Positions 26,242 through 38,742 of a stretch of DNA of 64,000 nucleotides are shown here, in pieces. Every line of letters starts with the position of its first letter. Position 1 is the first letter of the stretch. The position numbers and the translations under genes were made by a program. Under the pieces are notes generated by a model. It was not told where the DNA came from and searched no databases. It saw only the letters and a list, made by a program, of their open reading frames with translations. This DNA comes from Paraprevotella sp. GTDB lineage: Bacteria; Bacteroidota; Bacteroidia; Bacteroidales; Bacteroidaceae. The stretch lies in NCBI GenBank assembly GCA_017937925.1, contig JAGBCQ010000012.1, forward strand, positions 124,001 to 188,000, read 5' to 3'.

Positions 26242-26380
26242 CAAAGAACAAACCATCAAGAAGGTGTCGAGAAATCGACACCTTTTCTTTTTATATAGCA
26301 ACGTCAAAAGCCCGCTTTTGTAAGTTGATATATGAAAAGAATGGTAGCGGGAACCGCCCTTCTTGATGGTTTGTTATTTG
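26242..26380. repeat. Long inverted repeat downstream of tRNA-Ser
   Basis: An exact 18-bp arm, AACAAACCATCAAGAAGG (26247-26264), is repeated in inverted orientation at 26358-26375. With one mismatch the arms extend to 23 bp (26242-26264 and 26358-26380). The spacer is about 93 bp and contains the tRNA terminator and one copy of a 45-bp direct repeat. Part of a 313-bp gene-free stretch (26242-26554). Confidence 0.8.
26261..26290 (+). terminator. Terminator of tRNA-Ser
   Basis: AAGGTGTCGA-GAAA-TCGACACCTT is a perfect 10-bp stem with a GAAA tetraloop, followed by TTCTTTTT. Confidence 0.85.
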
Positions 26381-26989: not shown

Positions 26990-27964
26990 ATGATTACCGT
27001 ATTCTTCATCATTGCCATCATAGCAGTGATTTATGTAATGAAAGGTTTTATGATTGTTCCACAATCAGAAACAAAAGTAGTAGAACGTTTGGGACGTTAT
27101 GACAGAACCTTGCAATCGGGCATCAACTTCCTTCTGCCCATTGTTGACCGCGCACGTGAAGTCGTACAACGCGATGAAATCAAGCACACCAACAGCACGA
27201 AGAATGTCGTCATGCGCACCACATCACGCATCGACCTGCGTGAGCAAGTGTACGACTTTGACAAACAAAGCGTCATCACGAAAGACAATGTGACAACCAC
27301 CATTAACGCCCTACTCTATTTCCAGATTGTAGATCCTGTCAAGTCTGTGTACGAAATTGACAACCTACCCAACGCCATTGAAAAACTTACACAAACCACT
27401 TTACGTAATGTCATCGGCGAATTGGAATTGGACGAAACACTCACCTCACGCGACACCATCAACTCCAAATTACGCCTCGTATTGGACGAAGCCACGAACA
27501 AGTGGGGTGTAAAGGTAAACCGTGTAGAACTTCAAGACATCACGCCACCGGAATCAGTACGCAGAGCCATGGAACAACAAATGCAGGCCGAGCGAGAACG
27601 CCGCGCAAAAGTTCTTGAAGCACGCGGTAATAAAGAAGCCATGATACTACAATCCGAAGGTGAGAAAGAATCACAAATCAACCAAGCAGAAGCAGAACGC
27701 CAAACACAGATACTCAAGGCACAGGGCGAAGCTGATGCAAAGATTTTGCAAGCCAACGCAGAAGCAGAAGCAATACGAAAAGTGGCTGCCGCCATTGCCG
27801 AATCAAAGACCGACCCCGCCACTTATATGCTCTTGACAAAATATGTTGACGCCATCAAAGAAATTGGAAGCGGCGAACAATCCAAGACCGTTTTCTTACC
27901 CTTCGAAGCAAGCAACCTCGTAGGCGCACTCGGTTCACTCACAGAATTACTACCTAAAAAGTAA
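26990..27964 (+). CDS. SPFH/stomatin-like protein (QmcA type)
   Basis: A 324-residue SPFH (band 7) protein with one N-terminal membrane segment (residues about 2-20), an SPFH domain (MIVPQSETKVVERLGRYDRTL onward) and a long Ala/Glu/Gln-rich coiled coil (about 190-265) that mediates oligomerisation. It is the partner of the NfeD protein upstream. It forms membrane-bound rings in related bacteria; its specific role here is unknown. Confidence 0.9.
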   Translation: MITVFFIIAIIAVIYVMKGFMIVPQSETKVVERLGRYDRTLQSGINFLLPIVDRAREVVQRDEIKHTNSTKNVVMRTTSRIDLREQVYDFDKQSVITKDNVTTTINALLYFQIVDPVKSVYEIDNLPNAIEKLTQTTLRNVIGELELDETLTSRDTINSKLRLVLDEATNKWGVKVNRVELQDITPPESVRRAMEQQMQAERERRAKVLEARGNKEAMILQSEGEKESQINQAEAERQTQILKAQGEADAKILQANAEAEAIRKVAAAIAESKTDPATYMLLTKYVDAIKEIGSGEQSKTVFLPFEASNLVGALGSLTELLPKK

Positions 27965-28034
27965 TTCATGAATTAGGAATATATTTTACAGCAACACATT
28001 CCGATTTGTTCGGTTAATAAAAATAACCACACCC

Positions 28035-28070
28035 GTCCTATCATGCACCAAGCAAGATAGGACTTTTTTT
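28035..28070 (+). terminator. Terminator of nfeD-stomatin operon
   Basis: GTCCTATC (28035-28042) pairs with GATAGGAC (28056-28063), followed by seven T. It isolates the capsule locus from the upstream operon. Confidence 0.9.
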
Positions 28071-28101
28071 GTGCAAACCTTAAAAAAAGTTGTCACTTTT
28101 T

Positions 28102-28133
28102 ACTGACTATTAAAGAAATATTACATACCTTTG
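28102..28133 (+). promoter_or_regulatory. Predicted capsule-locus promoter
   Basis: TACCTTTG (28126-28133) is a perfect -7; the -33 position holds only ACTG (28102-28105) at 20-bp spacing. No inverted-repeat pair flanks it, unlike the invertible capsule promoters of B. fragilis. Confidence 0.5.
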
Positions 28134-28144
28134 TAAAGATTAGG

Positions 28145-28160
28145 ATACTCTAAAGAGTAT
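28145..28160 (+). promoter_or_regulatory. Palindrome in upxY leader
   Basis: ATACTCTAAAGAGTAT is a perfect 16-bp palindrome about 12 bp past the -7 element and 25 bp before the upxY ATG. In RNA it would form a 6-bp stem with a UAAA loop. UpxY proteins act on the leader between promoter and upxY, so it may be part of that recognition or pausing signal (inferred). Confidence 0.5.
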
Positions 28161-28185
28161 AGCTACTATCGCAAATGCTCTCTTT

Positions 28186-28842
28186 ATGGATAGCAATTTT
28201 GTAAAAAACGACCGGGATAAAACAAATGCGATGCCAGCCAACACACTAGCTGACAACGCCGTAGGCGTACCGGAAAGCGAGCAACCACAACGAAATTGGT
28301 ACATTGCAGTCGTTGGAAACAAAGCAGAAAAAGCCTGCTATGAACGGTTCAACAAATGGATTGAGCAACAACCCAACGGCACGAACGACTACGAAGTGTG
28401 CCTTCCTACACAAAAAACGCTCCGCCTGAAAAGCAACGGACAGCGCACCTACGCCGACCGCATCTTATTTCCCACACTTTTATTCATTAAATGCACAGAA
28501 AAGGCACGCCTCAAAGAGGTGGTGCGCCTTCCCTATATCAAACGTTTTTTTATCAACATTGCCGGAGCGAACGACAAAGGTCATCGTCCTGTAGCCATCA
28601 TACCCGACCACCAAATGGAGAATCTGAGACGATTGGCTTCGGACGCCGAATCGCCCATCAGCATTGAATCGCACGTATTCCAAATTGGCGAACGTGTCAG
28701 AGTCATTGCCGGCAATCTCATTGGATTAGAAGGATATGTCTGTCGGGAGCCGGATAATAGTACTAGCCTCGTAGTCAAAATGGACGTTCTAGGCTGTGCA
28801 AAAGTGTCTATCTCACAAGATTTTCTTCAGTTAATAAAATAA
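28186..28842 (+). CDS. UpxY-family capsule transcription antiterminator
   Basis: A 218-residue NusG paralogue. The NGN domain starts near residue 38 (NWYIAVVGNKAEKACYERF) and a KOW motif is near 165-200 (IGERVRVIAGNLIGLEGYV). In Bacteroides, UpxY proteins prevent premature termination of their own capsule operon. The polar N-terminal extension of about 37 residues makes it longer than typical UpxY. The usual partner upxZ is not found downstream; ugd follows. Its presence as first gene marks the start of the polysaccharide locus. Confidence 0.88.
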   Translation: MDSNFVKNDRDKTNAMPANTLADNAVGVPESEQPQRNWYIAVVGNKAEKACYERFNKWIEQQPNGTNDYEVCLPTQKTLRLKSNGQRTYADRILFPTLLFIKCTEKARLKEVVRLPYIKRFFINIAGANDKGHRPVAIIPDHQMENLRRLASDAESPISIESHVFQIGERVRVIAGNLIGLEGYVCREPDNSTSLVVKMDVLGCAKVSISQDFLQLIK

Positions 28843-30197: not shown

Positions 30198-30204
30198 AAT
30201 GAAA
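30171..30204 (+). repeat. 34-bp direct repeat, copy 1 (ugd 3' end)
   Basis: Starts ACACGCGACATCTTCAAG and contains the ugd stop codon. It recurs at 31121-31154 with one mismatch (C30179 to T31129). The two copies bracket the DUF6922-AbiEii module exactly, like direct repeats left by integration at the ugd 3' end. Confidence 0.85.
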
Positions 30205-30210
30205 TGCCCC

Positions 30211-30230
30211 GTTAAAGTTACCGTTAAAGT
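30211..30230 (+). repeat. GTTNNN hexamer array (short)
   Basis: GTTAAA-GTTACC-GTTAAA-GT: three and a half units of a hexanucleotide family seen also at 32859, 56283 and 58427. It lies between two possible starts of the DUF6922 gene. Confidence 0.65.
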
Positions 30231-30243
30231 AAAAAATCCCCAC

Positions 30244-30549
30244 ATGGAAACTACAGAATATTCCAAGAATTTTACAGAAGGGCTGTTTTGGGACATCGAC
30301 ATGGAACTCTTTGATATGGATAAATGCCCATCCCAAATCATCCAGCGCGTTCTTGAATACGGAGACATAAAAGACTGGAACACAATACGTTCATATTACG
30401 GGCTAGACAAGATTGTAGAAGTCTGTCAAAATCTTCGCACATTAGACCCCGTCTGCCTATCATTTATCTGTTGTATCTCCAACACCAATAAAGAAGAATA
30501 TAGATGTTATCACACAAGACAATCGAACCCGGCACATTGGAGTTACTAA
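30244..30549 (+). CDS. DUF6922-like protein, probable antitoxin partner
   Basis: About 101 residues from the ATG at 30244 (METTEYSKNF). It matches the DUF6922 pattern: FWDIDMELFDMDKCPSQIIQRVLEYG, DWNTIRSYYG, TLDPVCLSFICCI, and a C-terminal EEYRCYHTRQSNPAHWSY. In Bacteroidetes this small protein regularly precedes an AbiEii-type toxin and is the presumed antitoxin. The gene overlaps the toxin gene by 46 bp, implying translational coupling. An in-frame ATG at 30199 would add 15 residues encoded partly by the hexamer array (VKVTVKVK); the shorter start fits the family better. Confidence 0.72.
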   Translation: METTEYSKNFTEGLFWDIDMELFDMDKCPSQIIQRVLEYGDIKDWNTIRSYYGLDKIVEVCQNLRTLDPVCLSFICCISNTNKEEYRCYHTRQSNPAHWSY

Positions 30550-31121
30550 AATCTTTGATGTTAGAGCCTGAGTTCTCTCAATTACGCTTAGTTGGTGGGA
30601 CATCTCTAGCCCTACAATATGGGCATCGAGTATCTATTGATCTAGATTTCTTTGGTAAAATACAAACCGATGACGACACGATAAAAAGCATTCTTCATAA
30701 ATACGGTACATTAAAAGTTATCAAAGAAAGTGCAAACATTAAAGTCTATATACTTAACAATATAAAAATCGATATTGTAAACTACAATTACAAATGGATT
30801 GACGCACCACTTATTGAAGAAGATATCCGTTTAGCTACTCCAAAGGACATTGCAGCAATGAAAGTAAATGCGATAGCAGGAAGAGGTTCTAAAAAAGACT
30901 TTATCGATATGTATTTCCTTCTTCAACACTATTCTTTATCGGATATTATTAGTTTCTACGAAGAAAAATATCCGGAAAGTTCTGTATTTAGGGCATTGAT
31001 GAGCCTAACCTATTTTGAAGATGCAGAAGAACAAATCATGCCAAAGATGTTTTCTGAAACGTCTTGGGATACAATCAAGGAGCATATAATAAAAACCGTG
31101 AGCAAATATAAATTATTATAA
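30504..31121 (+). CDS. AbiEii/AbiGii-type nucleotidyltransferase toxin
   Basis: A 205-residue minimal nucleotidyltransferase. Motif I is VGGTSLAL (30-37) and the metal-binding DLD is at residues 46-48 (RVSIDLDFFG), followed by the conserved K-x-A-x3-R-x-x-KKDFIDMYFLL segment. AbiEii proteins are toxins of type IV toxin-antitoxin or abortive-infection systems that transfer nucleotides to tRNA. The stop codon's last base is the first base of the second 34-bp direct repeat. Lower GC than ugd, consistent with acquisition. Confidence 0.85.
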   Translation: MLSHKTIEPGTLELLKSLMLEPEFSQLRLVGGTSLALQYGHRVSIDLDFFGKIQTDDDTIKSILHKYGTLKVIKESANIKVYILNNIKIDIVNYNYKWIDAPLIEEDIRLATPKDIAAMKVNAIAGRGSKKDFIDMYFLLQHYSLSDIISFYEEKYPESSVFRALMSLTYFEDAEEQIMPKMFSETSWDTIKEHIIKTVSKYKLL

Positions 31122-32704: not shown

Positions 32705-32751
32705 TATATACAGTATCAAAACTATAAAGAAATAATTGGAACTATAACAAT

Positions 32752-32818
32752 AAATATTCAAAATAGGCATCAACTTCGACAGCGAAACCAAGAAGATAGA
32801 TGATTGGAAGATTCGGTA
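32752..32818 (+). pseudogene. 3'-end remnant of a PD-(D/E)XK nuclease / AAA ATPase gene (copy 1)
   Basis: The frame reads KIFKIGINFDSETKKIDDWKIR-stop, the usual C terminus of Bacteroidales AAA-ATPase-like proteins with a PD-(D/E)XK (DUF1703-type) nuclease domain. Only about 21 codons remain. The first 62 bp are 92% identical to 33873-33934 beyond the fic gene. Assignment of family is from memory of that C-terminal motif. Confidence 0.5.
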
Positions 32819-32926: not shown

Positions 32927-33799
32927 ATGAACCAACAACAAAAAATCTCAATCCGTTTCTTTAACAACAAAGAAGTTCGTGCCGCATGGGACTATGATGG
33001 CAACCGTTGGTTATTTTCTGTAGTCGATGTTATAGCAGTATTGACGGAAAGTAAAGATCCACGCAATTATTGGAAAGTTTTAAAACATCGCTTAACAAAA
33101 GACGGGAATGAGTTGGTTACACGTTGTAACCAACTGAAACTTGTTGCCACAGATGGCAAACGGTATAAAACCGACTGTTTATCTCAAAAAGAAATGCTCA
33201 ACCTCATTGAAGTCGTTCCTAGTCAACATGCTATCACCTTTGCAAAATGGCTAATTACAGGAGAGGATCAGATTGATAGCAAAAGTCGCGACAAAGCATA
33301 TCAATTATGGGACAGTTCCCTGTTAGAAACAATAGAGGTGGGAACTGTTCGTGGTTTACAACAAATCCACGCATATCTTTTTGGCGGCCTATACGAATTT
33401 GCAGGACAAATCCGACAAAAAAATATTTCCAAAGGTGGATTTCAATTTGCAGTATCAAGATTTCTAGACCAAACGCTCATTCAAATTGAGCGAATGCCAG
33501 AAAATGATATTAAATCAATTGTTGACAAGTACGTTGAAATGAACATTGCTCATCCTTTTATGGAAGGTAATGGTAGAAGTACTAGAATCTGGCTCGACTT
33601 AATTTTAAAACGCTCACTGAAGCATTGCGTTGATTGGAGTAAAATTGACAAATCAGCATACATGGAAGCAATGCGTTTAAGTCCAGTCAACTCAACAAAT
33701 ATTCAAACATTAATAACAAATGCTTTAACAGACAAAATCAATGACCGAGAGATTTTTATGAAAGGCATAGACTATTCTTATTATTACGAACAGGATTGA
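32927..33799 (+). CDS. BRO-N domain fused to Fic AMP-transferase
   Basis: A 290-residue protein. Residues 1-115 resemble the BRO-N/phage-antirepressor domain (KEVRAAWDYDGNRWLFSVVDVIAVLT, LSQKEMLNLIEVVPS). Residues 125-290 are a complete Fic domain with the full active-site motif HPFMEGNGRSTR, catalytic His209. The C terminus carries SYYYEQD: Ser284 and Glu288 fit the class III inhibitory motif S-x-x-x-E-(G/N), but the last position is Gln. Fic proteins usually AMPylate targets such as gyrase, so this may be a self-inhibited toxin. A separate antitoxin gene is not seen. It is flanked by remnants of another gene. Confidence 0.87.
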   Translation: MNQQQKISIRFFNNKEVRAAWDYDGNRWLFSVVDVIAVLTESKDPRNYWKVLKHRLTKDGNELVTRCNQLKLVATDGKRYKTDCLSQKEMLNLIEVVPSQHAITFAKWLITGEDQIDSKSRDKAYQLWDSSLLETIEVGTVRGLQQIHAYLFGGLYEFAGQIRQKNISKGGFQFAVSRFLDQTLIQIERMPENDIKSIVDKYVEMNIAHPFMEGNGRSTRIWLDLILKRSLKHCVDWSKIDKSAYMEAMRLSPVNSTNIQTLITNALTDKINDREIFMKGIDYSYYYEQD

Positions 33800-33940
33800 C
33801 AAATCAGCCCAAGAAGCTTTGGACCAAATAGAAGAAAAAGGATATGCAGACACCTTTGCCGGAGATAACAGAAAATATTCAAAATAGGCATCAACTTCGA
33901 TAGCGGAACCAAGAAAATAAACGATTGGAAGATTGTTTGA
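33795..33940 (+). pseudogene. 3'-end remnant of a PD-(D/E)XK nuclease / AAA ATPase gene (copy 2)
   Basis: Starting inside the last codons of fic, the sequence encodes IDKSAQEALDQIEEKGYADT and, after a one-base deletion in the A-run near 33873-33875, KIFKIGINFDSGTKKINDWKIV-stop. This resembles the last 50 residues of the DUF1703/PD-(D/E)XK AAA-ATPase family. It is frameshifted and lacks its upstream part. Its final 62 bp repeat those at 32752-32813, so fic sits between two copies of the same gene end. Confidence 0.6.
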
Positions 33941-34018
33941 TATAAAGAAAGATTTCATTATTTTTTATGATATTGAAATTAAAACATTTAAAATAATAAA
34001 TTAACCAATATTACATCT

Positions 34019-36076
34019 ATGGCAGACACGAAAAAAAGAACAATTCTGGAGAAAATTTCAACAAGAGTACCCGGACTTGATGAATTATTATTCGGTGGGT
34101 TAAATTTATCTGAAGACAACAATCTAATAATCATAAAGGGAGATGAAAGCATAGACAAAACATTATTAGGAATACAAATTGGATATGGAATAGCTCAATC
34201 ATTAAGTATAATTAATGGGGATACAAATTCTCATGAAGTTAATATTATATCTAACTATCATAAAGAAAAATATCTTAATGATTTGCTATTAGATACTTTA
34301 ATTGCTCATTGCACGCAAAAAATGATTGAGTTAAAAGCATCTGTTAATACAAACTTTTCAGATAATAATCTTTTTAATGCTTTTTTCTCTTCAACACCAT
34401 ATATTGAATATCGAAATGATAATATTCAAACGCCTCCCCCATCAAGTTGGCAAAACAACATAGATGAACTTATCTGCAGAGAAGCTATTTTTTACAATAA
34501 TAGGACTAATGGTCTTCATTATAGGAGCATACCTTTCGATACCAGTACAACCACTTTACTGTACAAACGCAAAAAGGATTCTATCAATGAATATTTTTCC
34601 GAAAACAACAAAGAAGATTTTGAAAAATTCAAAAGGCATATTGATGTATTAAGAAACAAATTACAAACTCCTATCATCAATGCTCATTGCAAGAATGTCG
34701 AAATCAAAAATCTTTCTCATGAGATAAATGAAAAGCCAAACAATATTTATATCTATGATCTTATAGACTACAATAAGAAACACAATTGGGAAGATATTAT
34801 AAACGGATTAAGTAAACACTATATTTCTATTCTTGTTATTTCAAAAGAACTAAATATACCTAACGATTTAGCAAATATGATTATTGAGTTAGGCAATAAA
34901 GAAAGTGATAATTATTACATTTATAATTTATCAATTAAAAGAAGTATATCGCAACAAACCTGCTTAGGAGTGCATCAATACAAAAAAAGAGATTATGGAT
35001 TAGAAATATTCCCTAACATTTACACGTATTTCTCCAAAAGAAGATATATGCAACGTGCTATTGTATATACTCATTCCGATGTTATTACTCCAACTTTCCA
35101 ACAATATTTGGATAGTATTCCTAATAATGCTTCTCCTAATGATTATAATTATAATTACTATAAACAAAAAAAAGAGTTATTAAAGATAGAAAATACAAAA
35201 GAACTAACTAATCCTAAGGATTCATACTTTTGCTCTGTTGATATTTTGGAACGCATATTCATGTCTCGCAGAAACAACACTGAAATAAATCATACTTCGA
35301 ATAAAGATATAATTAGTAATTACAGAGGTGGCGTCACAGCTGTTATTGGGAATCCCAACACTTATAAACGTTATATAACTTTTGGTAGTATCTTTAGTTC
35401 ATCTTTAAACGAAGAACATACACTAATATTCTTACTAAACAAAGATGACGCAACAATAAGAAGAAAATTATCATGTCCTGCATTATCTAAGCGATGCAAA
35501 TGCACTGGAGATACATGCATAAAATGTTATTCATACATCCATTTTATGAACATACTGATGGGCAATATTACACCCTCAGAAATTCTTTTCTATATCAAGA
35601 AACAAATTGAGATTACATACAATACTAAAAAAATAAAACGAATTATAATTGACGATATACAAATTATAGATTATTGTTTTCCTCTATTAAAAGAAGCTGA
35701 CCTCTTTATTTCATCATTAATTACACTATGTAGAGAAAAGAACATTGATTTATTCCTTTTATGTGATAAAACTGCTAAATCAGCAAACCAATTGTTAGCC
35801 ATTGCCGACAATGTAGTATGTACTCAAAGAGATAACGATAGTTCACTTATGTTATTTATTGAACATTATGCAGGCTATGATAAAGAACCAAGTAAAGTCT
35901 ACTGTGGAAAAGTAAAAAATCCACAAAACTTATTTGAATGTTACGAGACTGTAGATTCAGAAAATATGCCTATAAGACAATATGGAATTAAGGAAAGTGA
36001 GATTGAAGACATAGACATTTCAGACATGGATGATTTTTGGGTATATAAGGATATTAAGAATCATAAAAAAAGATAA
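34019..36076 (+). CDS. KaiC/RecA-like two-domain ATPase, unrecognised family
   Basis: A 685-residue protein. Its N-terminus (TRVPGLDELLFGGLN, residues 15-29) matches the start of KaiC/RadA-type domains and is followed by a P-loop-like GDESIDKT (41-48), in which the usual Gly before Lys is Asp. A second RecA-like half begins near 415, with YRGGVTAVIGNPNTYKR (degenerate P-loop 444-451), a CxCx4CxxC cluster (Cys493, 495, 500, 503) that may bind zinc, and a Walker B-like IIIDD (542-546). The tail is acidic. No known defence family fits. It is AT-rich, and the membrane-protein gene follows after 6 bp, so the two form a pair. Nucleotide binding is plausible; catalysis uncertain. Confidence 0.6.
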   Translation: MADTKKRTILEKISTRVPGLDELLFGGLNLSEDNNLIIIKGDESIDKTLLGIQIGYGIAQSLSIINGDTNSHEVNIISNYHKEKYLNDLLLDTLIAHCTQKMIELKASVNTNFSDNNLFNAFFSSTPYIEYRNDNIQTPPPSSWQNNIDELICREAIFYNNRTNGLHYRSIPFDTSTTTLLYKRKKDSINEYFSENNKEDFEKFKRHIDVLRNKLQTPIINAHCKNVEIKNLSHEINEKPNNIYIYDLIDYNKKHNWEDIINGLSKHYISILVISKELNIPNDLANMIIELGNKESDNYYIYNLSIKRSISQQTCLGVHQYKKRDYGLEIFPNIYTYFSKRRYMQRAIVYTHSDVITPTFQQYLDSIPNNASPNDYNYNYYKQKKELLKIENTKELTNPKDSYFCSVDILERIFMSRRNNTEINHTSNKDIISNYRGGVTAVIGNPNTYKRYITFGSIFSSSLNEEHTLIFLLNKDDATIRRKLSCPALSKRCKCTGDTCIKCYSYIHFMNILMGNITPSEILFYIKKQIEITYNTKKIKRIIIDDIQIIDYCFPLLKEADLFISSLITLCREKNIDLFLLCDKTAKSANQLLAIADNVVCTQRDNDSSLMLFIEHYAGYDKEPSKVYCGKVKNPQNLFECYETVDSENMPIRQYGIKESEIEDIDISDMDDFWVYKDIKNHKKR

Positions 36077-36082
36077 ATATAT

Positions 36083-37189
36083 ATGCTAAAAGATTTCAAC
36101 GAATGGCTTAAAAAAGAAAAATATCAAATTTGCCTAACATTACTTGCCGCCATAATACCTGTCATTCTTTCTGCAATATTTATAAAAGCAGGAGAAACCG
36201 ATTCGGTAGTACCCTTTAATCCAAATAATTACCCAAATAATGAATTAGTAAATAGCGAGGTAAATAAGAGTTCTGAAAGTGATCTAAAAATATTCATTAA
36301 AAGATTTACAATTTCAGAGCGACAAAACTATGCAGCACAATCACTATTTATATTTTTTTCATTGTTTATCCTTCTACATAACAAAAAGATTATTTATGAT
36401 TACCTTGAAAATGGTCAATCTATTAAAACCTATTTGATAAGAAAATGTCATGTCAAAATTAAAGATGAAAATACAATAATTGAAAAATATAATATTATTC
36501 AAGATACAACAAAATATTTCTTTAGGGTTTGGATTTTAGTATGGATGATGTGGCTTGCACTATATTTGGGGTTGTTTATGTTTACTATTATAGACATAAA
36601 TAAAGCCTCCTCAATAATTAGCATACCAATATCCCAACTATTTTATAGACAAGTTTTTGATTTCATGACAAGCTCAACCGTTTTTATTATTTATTTAGTA
36701 TTAACGAATGTGACCATTAATATTAGACATCATAAAAATTATGATGAAAGTATATGGTGGGGAATTCTTGGTTGGATTCTATGCTTTACCATATTTATAA
36801 TATGCTTATGTGCTGAATTTACATATAAAGATTCTGAAAATGCTCGAATAATAACCACTACTTTACTGAGCGTCATATCGGCCATTTCATTTTTACTTGT
36901 ACTTGGTAAGTTAAATAGTTTATATTTACAAATACCGCAAGGTTTTCTTATTATTTTATATTTTTACGGAATTTTTCAATGCTATCATGCCTTCCCATTA
37001 ATCTTAGAAAAGAACATCATTGTATATTTGAATTTTCTTATCCCTTACATAACACTAATAGGAAAAGTTGTATTAATGCTAACCTTATGTTGGATTACAT
37101 ACAATAAAAGATTTATATACTATATTATACACCAGACCGTATTAGTCGAAGAAACACCGCAACTATTGAAAGAGTTAAACCGGAAATAA
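36083..37189 (+). CDS. Multi-span membrane protein paired with KaiC-like ATPase
   Basis: A 368-residue protein of unrecognised family. Hydrophobic segments lie near residues 14-35, 88-101, 146-170, 191-211, 224-245, 256-277, 287-304 and 310-340, so seven or eight membrane spans. Between spans 1 and 2 is a 50-residue polar loop; a charged cytoplasmic-type loop (KTYLIRKCHVKIKDENTIIEKYN) lies near 115-140. It starts 6 bp after the ATPase gene and ends 20 bp before wzx. It could be the membrane effector or anchor of the ATPase. Confidence 0.6.
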   Translation: MLKDFNEWLKKEKYQICLTLLAAIIPVILSAIFIKAGETDSVVPFNPNNYPNNELVNSEVNKSSESDLKIFIKRFTISERQNYAAQSLFIFFSLFILLHNKKIIYDYLENGQSIKTYLIRKCHVKIKDENTIIEKYNIIQDTTKYFFRVWILVWMMWLALYLGLFMFTIIDINKASSIISIPISQLFYRQVFDFMTSSTVFIIYLVLTNVTINIRHHKNYDESIWWGILGWILCFTIFIICLCAEFTYKDSENARIITTTLLSVISAISFLLVLGKLNSLYLQIPQGFLIILYFYGIFQCYHAFPLILEKNIIVYLNFLIPYITLIGKVVLMLTLCWITYNKRFIYYIIHQTVLVEETPQLLKELNRK

Positions 37190-37209
37190 GCCTATATAGA
37201 TTTCAACGC

Positions 37210-38742
37210 ATGAACGAAAACAATAAACGTATAGCAAAAAATACACTTGTACTTTATGTGCGTATGTTGGCTATGATGGTTATTAGCATATACACATCAA
37301 GAGTTATTCTAAAATCACTCGGCATTGAGGATTATGGAATTTACAATGTCGTTGGTGGATTTGTATCCATGTTCACAATGATTTCCGGATCACTTAACAA
37401 TGCAATTAATCGCTTTTTAATGTTTGATATCGGTAAGGGTAATATTGAGCAATTAACAAAAACCTTTTCTTCTGCCGTCACGATTCAAATGCTATTGGCA
37501 TTGATATTTTTTATTATTGCAGAAACAATAGGTCTTTGGTTTCTTAATTACAAAATGGTTATCCCCGAAAGTCGAATACTTGCAACAAATTTCGTATATC
37601 AATTCTCTATAATATCATTCATGCTAAGTTTAATTACTATCCCATATAACGCCATAATTATTGCACATGAAAAAATGTCAATCTTTGCTTATATGAGTAT
37701 TCTTGACGTTGTTGGTAAATTATTAATTGCATGGAGTACGCAATATACACCGACCGACAAATTGATTTTCTTTTCTGCAATTATTATGATATTTAATTTA
37801 ATCATGCGATTAATCTATGGCATTTATTGTAAAAGGAATTTCGAAGAATGTAATTTTAAATTTAATTTTGATAAGGAACGACTTAAAGAAATGTTCAGTT
37901 TCGCAGGTTGGAATGTGATAGGTTCTGCTTCTGCCATTTTGAGAGACCAAGGAGGAAACATTTTAATTAATTTGTTCTTTGGTCCGACGGTAAATGCAGC
38001 TAGAGCTATTGCAAGCCAAGTTAATAACGCAATTACAGGATTTGTTCATAACTTTCAGACTGCACTAACACCACAAATTATTAAGAACTACGCATCTTCA
38101 AATCATGATTATATGTTTACTTTAGTCATGAAGGGCGCAAGGTTTTCATTCTACATTTTATTTTTCCTTTCATTACCATTTATCCTAAATACTGACTATA
38201 TATTACAATTATGGCTTGAAGAAGTTCCTGCACATTCTGCATTATTCGTACAGTTAGTTCTCATTTTGGCTATGTTTGACTGCATTGCTAATCCATTTGT
38301 CACAATAGCCTTAGCAACAGGAAGAATTAGAAACTATCAATTAATAGTTGGTGGATTACAAATGCTAAATTTACCCATAGCATATATCTGTCTCAGAGTG
38401 GGGAGCTTTCCTGAGATAGTAACTATTGTTGCAATATTTATGGCATCGATTTGTATGGTCGCTCGTTTGATTATACTAAAAAAAATGGTAAACTTAAATA
38501 TACAGAGAGTATGTAAAGAGGTTTTCTTTAACGCCATTAAAGTAGGACTTTTATCCTCTATAATACCATATCTCATACACATTAACAACGAAACAACTTT
38601 TTTACATTTTATGATTGATTTTATCTTTTGTTTAATTTCCTCGTCTATAGTAATACTATTTGTGGGATGTGATAAGAAAGAGCGGACATTCATTTTTGAA
38701 AAAGTATTTGATAAATTGAATTTAAAGAACACAAATAAATGA
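37210..38742 (+). CDS. Wzx-type polysaccharide flippase
   Basis: A 510-residue MATE/MOP-superfamily protein with 12-14 membrane spans (start region IAKNTLVLYVRMLAMMVISIYTSRVILKSLGIEDYGIYNVVGGFV, typical of Bacteroides Wzx). It should flip undecaprenyl-linked repeat units across the inner membrane. It overlaps the next gene by 4 bp (ATGA), starting the tightly packed polysaccharide operon. Confidence 0.9.
   Translation: MNENNKRIAKNTLVLYVRMLAMMVISIYTSRVILKSLGIEDYGIYNVVGGFVSMFTMISGSLNNAINRFLMFDIGKGNIEQLTKTFSSAVTIQMLLALIFFIIAETIGLWFLNYKMVIPESRILATNFVYQFSIISFMLSLITIPYNAIIIAHEKMSIFAYMSILDVVGKLLIAWSTQYTPTDKLIFFSAIIMIFNLIMRLIYGIYCKRNFEECNFKFNFDKERLKEMFSFAGWNVIGSASAILRDQGGNILINLFFGPTVNAARAIASQVNNAITGFVHNFQTALTPQIIKNYASSNHDYMFTLVMKGARFSFYILFFLSLPFILNTDYILQLWLEEVPAHSALFVQLVLILAMFDCIANPFVTIALATGRIRNYQLIVGGLQMLNLPIAYICLRVGSFPEIVTIVAIFMASICMVARLIILKKMVNLNIQRVCKEVFFNAIKVGLLSSIIPYLIHINNETTFLHFMIDFIFCLISSSIVILFVGCDKKERTFIFEKVFDKLNLKNTNK

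What the first reader, a model, noticed from the sequence alone, without database searches (positions are those of the whole stretch)
34019..37189. Unrecognised two-gene system: KaiC/RecA-like ATPase plus multi-span membrane protein
The first gene encodes 685 residues with a KaiC-like start (PGLDELLFGG), a near-canonical P-loop (GDESIDKT), a second RecA-like half with a degenerate P-loop, a Cx1Cx4CxxC cluster and an IIIDD Walker B. The second gene begins 6 bp later and has seven or eight membrane spans. Neither is a capsule enzyme, and both lie in an island with a toxin-antitoxin pair and a Fic protein. A cytoplasmic nucleotide sensor with a membrane effector is the architecture of many anti-phage systems. 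That function is inference; domain motifs are seen directly.
Basis: partly seen in the sequence, partly recalled or inferred. Interest (0 to 1): 0.78.

Follow-up and report, generated by a model that had tools for sequence, protein, structure and literature searches.

The report
KaiC-like switch with swappable partner gene
Two adjacent genes, slotted into a gut bacterium's capsule gene cluster, form an apparently undescribed pair that looks like an anti-virus system: a clock-protein-like switch that travels either with a membrane protein or with an NAD-enzyme-like gene.

Summary
Window 34019-36076 encodes a 685-aa KaiC-related protein; 6 nt later, 36083-37189 encodes a multi-span membrane protein. 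Neither passes a Pfam or NCBIfam cut-off and PADLOC lists nothing for them, but KaiC is the best Pfam family in 9 of 9 homologues (above cut-off in 1). In 6 of 9 distinct loci the same membrane family follows within 10 nt; in the other 3 it is absent and a SIR2_2 (NADase-type) gene directly precedes. One tree branch (100/100) separates the types. Six loci lie in or beside glycan genes, one beside terminase and integrase, one beside a transposase, one near a GmrSD_N gene. A same-genus relative has the same flanks (flippase 92.5% identical) without the pair: an optional cassette, not core capsule machinery. Correction: 9 of 9 lack the P-loop glycine in the first half and have G-x-x-N-x-x-K-[RG] in the second, suggesting a pseudo-ATPase or nucleotide-binding switch. 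Best reading: a two-gene anti-phage (abortive-infection-type) system with interchangeable effectors; function untested. Against: one membrane homologue without KaiC; no match in viral contigs or plasmids; most loci are glycan loci; structure prediction was never available.

The parts
34019..36076 (+). KaiC-like protein, 685 aa; proposed sensor or switch
   Evidence: ORF; KaiC homology of the first half; nine homologous loci
36083..37189 (+). multi-span membrane protein, 368 aa; proposed effector
   Evidence: ORF; hydrophobic spans; same family downstream of the KaiC-like gene in 6 of 6 loci of this type
34040..35053 (+). first KaiC-like domain, residues 8-345, ending in the G[LI]E[IV][FY]P motif; P-loop at residues 41-48 lacks the glycine before Lys
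35216..35938 (+). second, RecA-like half (assignment weak), residues 400-640: degenerate P-loop GNPNTYKR (444-451), Cys residues 486-503, Walker B IIIDD (542-546)
   Evidence: (colinear, but E 0.26 and probability 0.2%); no KaiC or RecA chain found in the PDB by sequence
33934..37209 (+). extent of the optional cassette, judged by comparison with the allele without it in L060
33795..33933 (+). relic of the 3' end of an AAA-ATPase_like/PDDEXK_9 gene that is whole in L060; left edge of the cassette
37210..38742 (+). Wzx-type flippase gene, 20 nt after the membrane gene; right edge of the cassette
   Evidence: Pfam PF01943; 92.5% nucleotide identity to L060

Best explanation
A two-gene conflict system of Bacteroidales, most likely anti-phage and of the abortive-infection type. 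The KaiC-like protein (probably two RecA-type halves, both with altered P-loops) would act as a nucleotide-binding switch that senses an infection cue and releases or activates its partner. In this window the partner is a 6-8-span membrane protein that would permeabilise or depolarise the inner membrane; in related loci it is a SIR2_2 protein that would deplete NAD+. Shown: the genes, the homology of the first half, tight linkage, the partner swap, presence/absence of the cassette at one site, and location in variable regions. Inferred: phage as trigger, the direction sensor to effector, nucleotide binding, membrane damage as output.
For: Membrane gene downstream in 6 of 6 loci of this type, gaps 3-10 nt. 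SIR2_2 gene directly upstream in the 3 others: 4-nt gap, 4-nt overlap, 14-nt overlap; tblastn finds no membrane homologue in those 3 loci and no SIR2 homologue in the window or the 5 other membrane-type loci. Pfam SIR2_2 passes in 3 of 3: 46.8, 44.5, 31.7 bits against 24.5; GAG, N-x-D and H-x-H residues invariant in 3 of 3. The types lie on two sides of one branch, 100/100. KaiC-like and membrane pairwise identities correlate, r 0.955 over 15 pairs from 6 loci. Allele without the cassette in a same-genus genome. Mobile or defence-like neighbours: terminase and integrase in L020; transposase and AbiEii in L016; GmrSD_N 3.5 kb away in L015; DUF2971, a PADLOC candidate (PDC-S31), in L014.
Against: No Pfam or NCBIfam cut-off passed and no PADLOC match for the pair. 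No match in plasmids or in five scans of viral contigs; the only phage-collection match, MT835535.1, reads as a bacterial glycan locus. 6 of 9 loci lie in or beside glycan genes, which a capsule-linked role would also predict. A true membrane homologue stands without a KaiC-like gene in L044. Neither P-loop is canonical, so energy-driven sensing is unproven. The second half has no significant match to a known fold. No structure model: all 23 prediction requests met a full queue. No experiment.
Confidence: 0.58

Rival explanations
1. A capsule-linked regulatory pair: the KaiC-like protein, perhaps as a nucleotide-responsive regulator, and its membrane partner tune polysaccharide synthesis or export of the operon they sit in.
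For: 6 of 9 loci lie in or beside glycan genes; in the window the pair ends 20 nt before the flippase gene and has the GC of the capsule genes; a flippase homologue lies in L012, L013 and L014 too; NusG-family (UpxY-type, name recalled) genes lie upstream in the window and L014, and a weak relative in L012.
Against: The same-genus allele L060 has the flippase and dehydrogenase without the pair. No glycan genes were seen beside the pair in L015 and L016, nor on the one side visible in L020. SIR2_2 as alternative partner does not fit glycan regulation.
Confidence: 0.17
2. A toxin-antitoxin-like or element-stabilising module: the KaiC-like protein restrains a toxic membrane or SIR2_2 partner, without a dedicated phage trigger.
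For: Two tightly linked genes, cassette behaviour, neighbours include AbiEii/DUF6922 and Fic genes.
Against: A protein of this size and make-up is not typical of antitoxins (general knowledge); no match on 72,556 plasmid records.
Confidence: 0.15
3. Another conflict role, such as exclusion of conjugative elements, or immunity tied to interbacterial competition.
For: Some copies sit beside transposase, integrase or other mobile-element genes (L016, L020).
Against: I saw no secretion or conjugation gene shared by the nine neighbourhoods; this was by reading the ORF lists, not by a dedicated search.
Confidence: 0.08

Closest known systems
KaiC family (Pfam PF06745; cyanobacterial clock KaiC and bacterial or archaeal KaiC-like ATPases)
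   Same: N-terminal KIxTxIxGLDxLLYDGL start, P-loop position, end-of-domain G[IL]E[IV][FY]P motif; best Pfam family in 9 of 9
   Different: No complete Walker A in either half (9 of 9), the EE pair of canonical KaiC is missing in the aligned stretch, large insert with the RT motif (NRTN in most), Cys residues in the second half, fixed partner genes; 8 of 9 score below the family cut-off
SIR2-domain antiphage proteins (ThsA of Thoeris, DSR1/DSR2, SIR2-HerA), recalled; DSR2 and Thoeris also appear in the listings
   Same: 3 of 9 loci carry a SIR2_2 gene coupled to the KaiC-like gene, with GAG, N-x-D and H-x-H residues kept
   Different: The partner is KaiC-like, not TIR (ThsB), a C-terminal sensor domain (DSR2) or HerA; PADLOC lists nothing for P0006 and P0023 and only weak matches for P0020 (PDC-S25 E 0.0003, SIR2 E 0.0026)
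Antiphage systems with interchangeable membrane or NADase effectors, such as CBASS (recalled)
   Same: One regulator family combined with either a multi-span membrane protein or an NADase-type protein
   Different: No nucleotidyltransferase of the signalling kind seen beside the pair; the regulator is KaiC-like

Membership tests
KaiC family (PF06745) | Profile match above the curated cut-off (26.6 bits) | tested here: inconclusive
   Best Pfam family in 9 of 9, but above the cut-off in 1 of 9 (P0004, 30.5 bits); the window protein has 12.2 bits
KaiC family (PF06745) | Canonical Walker A GxxxxGK[ST] in the first domain | tested here: not met
   Glycine before Lys replaced by D, E or N in 9 of 9; Lys to Arg in 2 of 9
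KaiC family (PF06745) | Canonical Walker A in the second domain | tested here: not met
   GxxNxxK[RG] in 9 of 9
KaiC family (PF06745) | Catalytic glutamate pair downstream of the P-loop (recalled as a KaiC feature) | tested here: not met
   EE of the second domain of the L037 KaiC aligns with Tyr-His of P0001 (one alignment)
KaiC family (PF06745) | End-of-domain GIxVYP motif | tested here: met
   G[LI]E[IV][FY]P in 9 of 9; aligned to GFDIYP of the L037 KaiC (E 0.007); Pfam KaiC matches P0005, P0013 and P0021 at the end of the profile
KaiC family (PF06745) | Second half also of RecA/KaiC fold | tested here: inconclusive
   Colinear hhalign match but E 0.26, probability 0.2%; no KaiC or RecA chain in the PDB search; no structure model could be made
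Known or candidate defence systems in PADLOC-DB 2.0.0 | Match of either protein to a PADLOC model | tested here: not met
   0 families for P0001 and P0002 at E up to 1, and for P0005 and P0015 at E up to 0.1
SIR2_2 family (PF13289), for the alternative partner | Profile match above the cut-off (24.5 bits) | tested here: met
   3 of 3: P0006 46.8, P0020 44.5, P0023 31.7 bits
SIR2_2 family (PF13289), for the alternative partner | Catalytic Asn and His (their role recalled) | tested here: met
   N178, D180, H234, H236 invariant in 3 of 3
Abortive-infection two-gene system | Protection against phage with death or arrest of infected cells | not testable with these tools
   needs experiment

The most novel reading that the evidence does not exclude
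A new class of bacterial immune system: a tandem KaiC-like protein that has given up canonical Walker A motifs in both halves and works as a nucleotide-binding switch, controlling either a membrane effector or a SIR2 NADase; and because the cassette sits inside capsule operons, intracellular immunity is expressed together with a particular capsule, coupling surface and internal defence.
Probability: 0.25. Interest if true: 0.85.

Novelty: new variant of a known kind. Interest (0 to 1): 0.62.

Why it matters
If true, it adds the KaiC family, known for clocks and signalling, to the list of immune switches, gives one regulator with two natural outputs that can be compared side by side, and shows that capsule loci of gut Bacteroidales carry optional intracellular-defence cassettes. 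The presence/absence alleles in one genus make a clean comparison possible.

Tried and rejected
Phage carriage: the tblastn hit in phage record MT835535.1 looked like a phage copy; in the 13.9 kb read (of 37.9 kb) I saw glycosyltransferases and no phage gene, so I count it as a bacterial glycan locus. Five viral-contig scans found no relative. Invertible promoter upstream of the NusG-family gene: no inverted repeat of 10 nt or more in 27900-28250, so phase variation is not claimed. Not counted as members: a weak membrane hit in G033 (E 1.7e-4; a Trk-type potassium transporter as read by eye), one in G254 (E 1.8e-4, not followed), and the KaiC hit in G850 (a canonical KaiC). The L028 fragment (205 aa, contig end) was left out of the nine because its partner cannot be seen. 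SIR2_2 relatives in L045-L047 have no KaiC-like gene in the stretches fetched. A PDB search with the second half gave one unrelated chain at E 0.24, with the membrane alignment none, and with the SIR2 proteins none of note. PHROGs gave nothing for P0001, P0002, P0005, P0006, P0015 and P0018. Literature: eight full-text searches; I saw the listings and starts of abstracts (at most 20 papers of each, where up to 645 held the terms), and one passage of PMC5512222, whose only mention of KaiC concerns SMS/RadA domains as its sister lineage. None of these titles or abstract starts reports KaiC-like proteins in phage defence. Structure prediction was asked for 23 times and each time the queue was full; no fold search was therefore possible.
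Full report
What is there. The window protein P0001 (685 aa) starts with a KaiC-type stretch (GLDELLFGGL); P0002 (368 aa) follows after 6 nt, and the Wzx-type flippase gene follows P0002 after another 20 nt. No curated family claims either protein, so the assignment rests on homologues.

Homologues. With the window's own genome counted in, matches were found in 4 of 200 relatives, 5 of 393 genomes of the order at 85% completeness or more and 5 of 399 of the family; at phylum level only the own genome and one canonical KaiC matched among 395. A scan of genome contigs with the four-sequence alignment gave six loci after a single-sequence scan had given none, and a tblastn of phage records gave one more. 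Eight of the nine are from Bacteroidales; the ninth (L029) is a faecal scaffold filed as a phage. The family is thus rare.

Partners. In six loci (window, L012, L013, L015, L016, L020) the KaiC-like gene is followed by the same membrane family, with gaps of 6, 3, 6, 9, 10 and 5 nt (coordinates; alignment). In the other three (L014, L027, L029) tblastn finds no membrane homologue, and a SIR2_2 gene lies directly upstream, with a 4-nt gap, a 14-nt overlap and a 4-nt overlap. The six membrane-type loci, in turn, hold no SIR2 homologue in the stretches fetched. The three SIR2 proteins share 37-41% identity with the first; 3 of 3 pass Pfam SIR2_2, and the GAG, N-x-D and H-x-H residues are invariant (their catalytic meaning is recalled). 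One branch of the KaiC tree separates the two types with 100/100 support, in a tree of nine rows with long branches. Pairwise identities of KaiC-like and membrane proteins over the six loci correlate with r = 0.955; this fits inheritance together, but one close pair (L015/L016) contributes much to it. An exception must be told: L044 has a real membrane homologue (hhalign E 1.2e-18) and no KaiC-like gene in the 17 kb fetched. In 197 genomes of the order the membrane profile matched 3, the SIR2 profile 3, the latter all without a KaiC-like gene nearby.

The KaiC-like protein. The profile of the first half finds 38 KaiC chains and one UPF0273 chain among PDB sequences at E up to 0.01 (best 4.4e-5, over the first 50 positions or so). 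KaiC is the best Pfam family of 9 of 9 homologues, at the start of the domain in some and at its end in others, but above the cut-off in only one. Against the canonical KaiC of L037, hhalign aligns the start and P-loop (E 7e-7, probability 92%), the end-of-domain motif (E 0.007, probability 6%) and, not significantly, the second half (E 0.26, probability 0.2%), in the right order. All nine lack the glycine before the P-loop lysine in the first half. In the second half they share G-x-x-N-x-x-K followed by R (8) or G (1), and an invariant Walker B aspartate. The EE pair of canonical KaiC is missing in the aligned stretch. I read this as a nucleotide-binding or pseudo-ATPase switch; that the second half is RecA-like is likely but not proven, because no structure model could be obtained. 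Three cysteines (486, 500, 503) are kept in 8, 8 and 9 of 9 and could bind a metal (inference).

Where it sits. Six loci lie in or beside glycan genes: the window; L012 (flippase homologue downstream, then the contig ends); L013 and L014 (flippase homologue; other glycan genes read by eye; a NusG-family gene upstream in L014); L027 (UDP-GlcNAc 2-epimerase, others by eye); L029 (glycosyltransferases). L015 has a GmrSD_N gene 3.5 kb upstream; L016 has a DDE transposase directly upstream and an AbiEii gene further up; L020 has a terminase large subunit and an integrase on the membrane-gene side, while its other side is not visible because the contig ends. The L020 KaiC-like gene has a broken frame towards its 3' end; intact copies exist elsewhere.

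Allele without the cassette. In G007, same genus, a 3,473-base contig (L060) carries the 3' end of the same UDP-glucose dehydrogenase gene (87.6% nucleotide identity), a whole AAA-ATPase_like/PDDEXK_9 gene and, 26 nt later, the flippase (92.5%). tblastn finds no KaiC-like gene there. In the window the 3' end of that ATPase gene remains as a relic at 33795-33933 (85.7%), and a shorter copy at 32744-32812 (92.9%); the pair lies between the first relic and the flippase. So this operon exists with and without the pair, and the interval between dehydrogenase and flippase seems to have taken up several cargo genes (AbiEii/DUF6922, VapE-like, Bro-Fic, the pair); their order of arrival is not known. 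The pair's GC (0.28-0.29) equals that of the capsule genes, unlike the AbiEii, VapE-like and Fic genes, so it may have come from another capsule locus (inference).

Reading. Fixed coupling to one of two effector-like genes, cassette behaviour and variable surroundings are what is expected of a conflict system; SIR2-type NADases are established antiphage effectors (general knowledge; see the listings). The simplest model is a KaiC-like sensor or switch that unleashes either NAD+ depletion or membrane damage on infection. I give this 0.58. The capsule-regulator rival keeps 0.17 because two thirds of the loci are glycan loci; its main prediction, that the pair belongs to the operon's core, fails at L060.

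Novelty. Eight full-text searches listed nothing on KaiC-like proteins in phage defence; the listings are capped and the library lacks many subscription papers, so this is not proof of absence. The pattern (regulator plus exchangeable effector) is known; a KaiC-like regulator with altered P-loops, and its lodging in capsule operons, is new to the sources I could search.

Noticed in passing
window 32744-32812 and 33795-33933: Two relics of the 3' end of an AAA-ATPase_like/PDDEXK_9 gene that is whole in the relative L060; they look like marks of cargo turnover between dehydrogenase and flippase.
   Followed up: partly
window 32927-33799: Fic protein with a weak Bro-N match; strong match to PADLOC candidate PDC-S04 (463 bits) and NCBIfam protein adenylyltransferase Fic (269 bits).
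   Followed up: no
window 30199-31121: DUF6922 gene followed by an AbiEii-type gene, a toxin-antitoxin-like pair inserted in the capsule locus.
   Followed up: no
L014 4430-8829: Between the SIR2/KaiC-like pair and the flippase lie a GlmS-like gene (by eye), a DUF2971 gene (PADLOC candidate PDC-S31) and an unassigned 347-aa protein: another cargo-rich capsule locus.
   Followed up: partly
L013 295-5565: 1757-aa protein with a sub-threshold AAA_16 match upstream of the glycan genes; no family above cut-off.
   Followed up: no
L016 13206-15638: 811-aa AAA_16 ATPase directly downstream of the membrane gene; possible third component in that locus.
   Followed up: no
L045 5865-7226: TIR domain fused to SIR2_2 in one protein (454 aa), found with the SIR2 profile.
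   Followed up: no
L029 (MT835535.1): Record filed as an unverified bacteriophage, but the 13.9 kb read carry glycosyltransferases and no phage gene that I recognised: probably a bacterial scaffold.
   Followed up: partly
window 26242-26380: 23-nt inverted repeat (96% complementary, 93 nt apart) starting at the last base of the tRNA-Ser gene.
   Followed up: no
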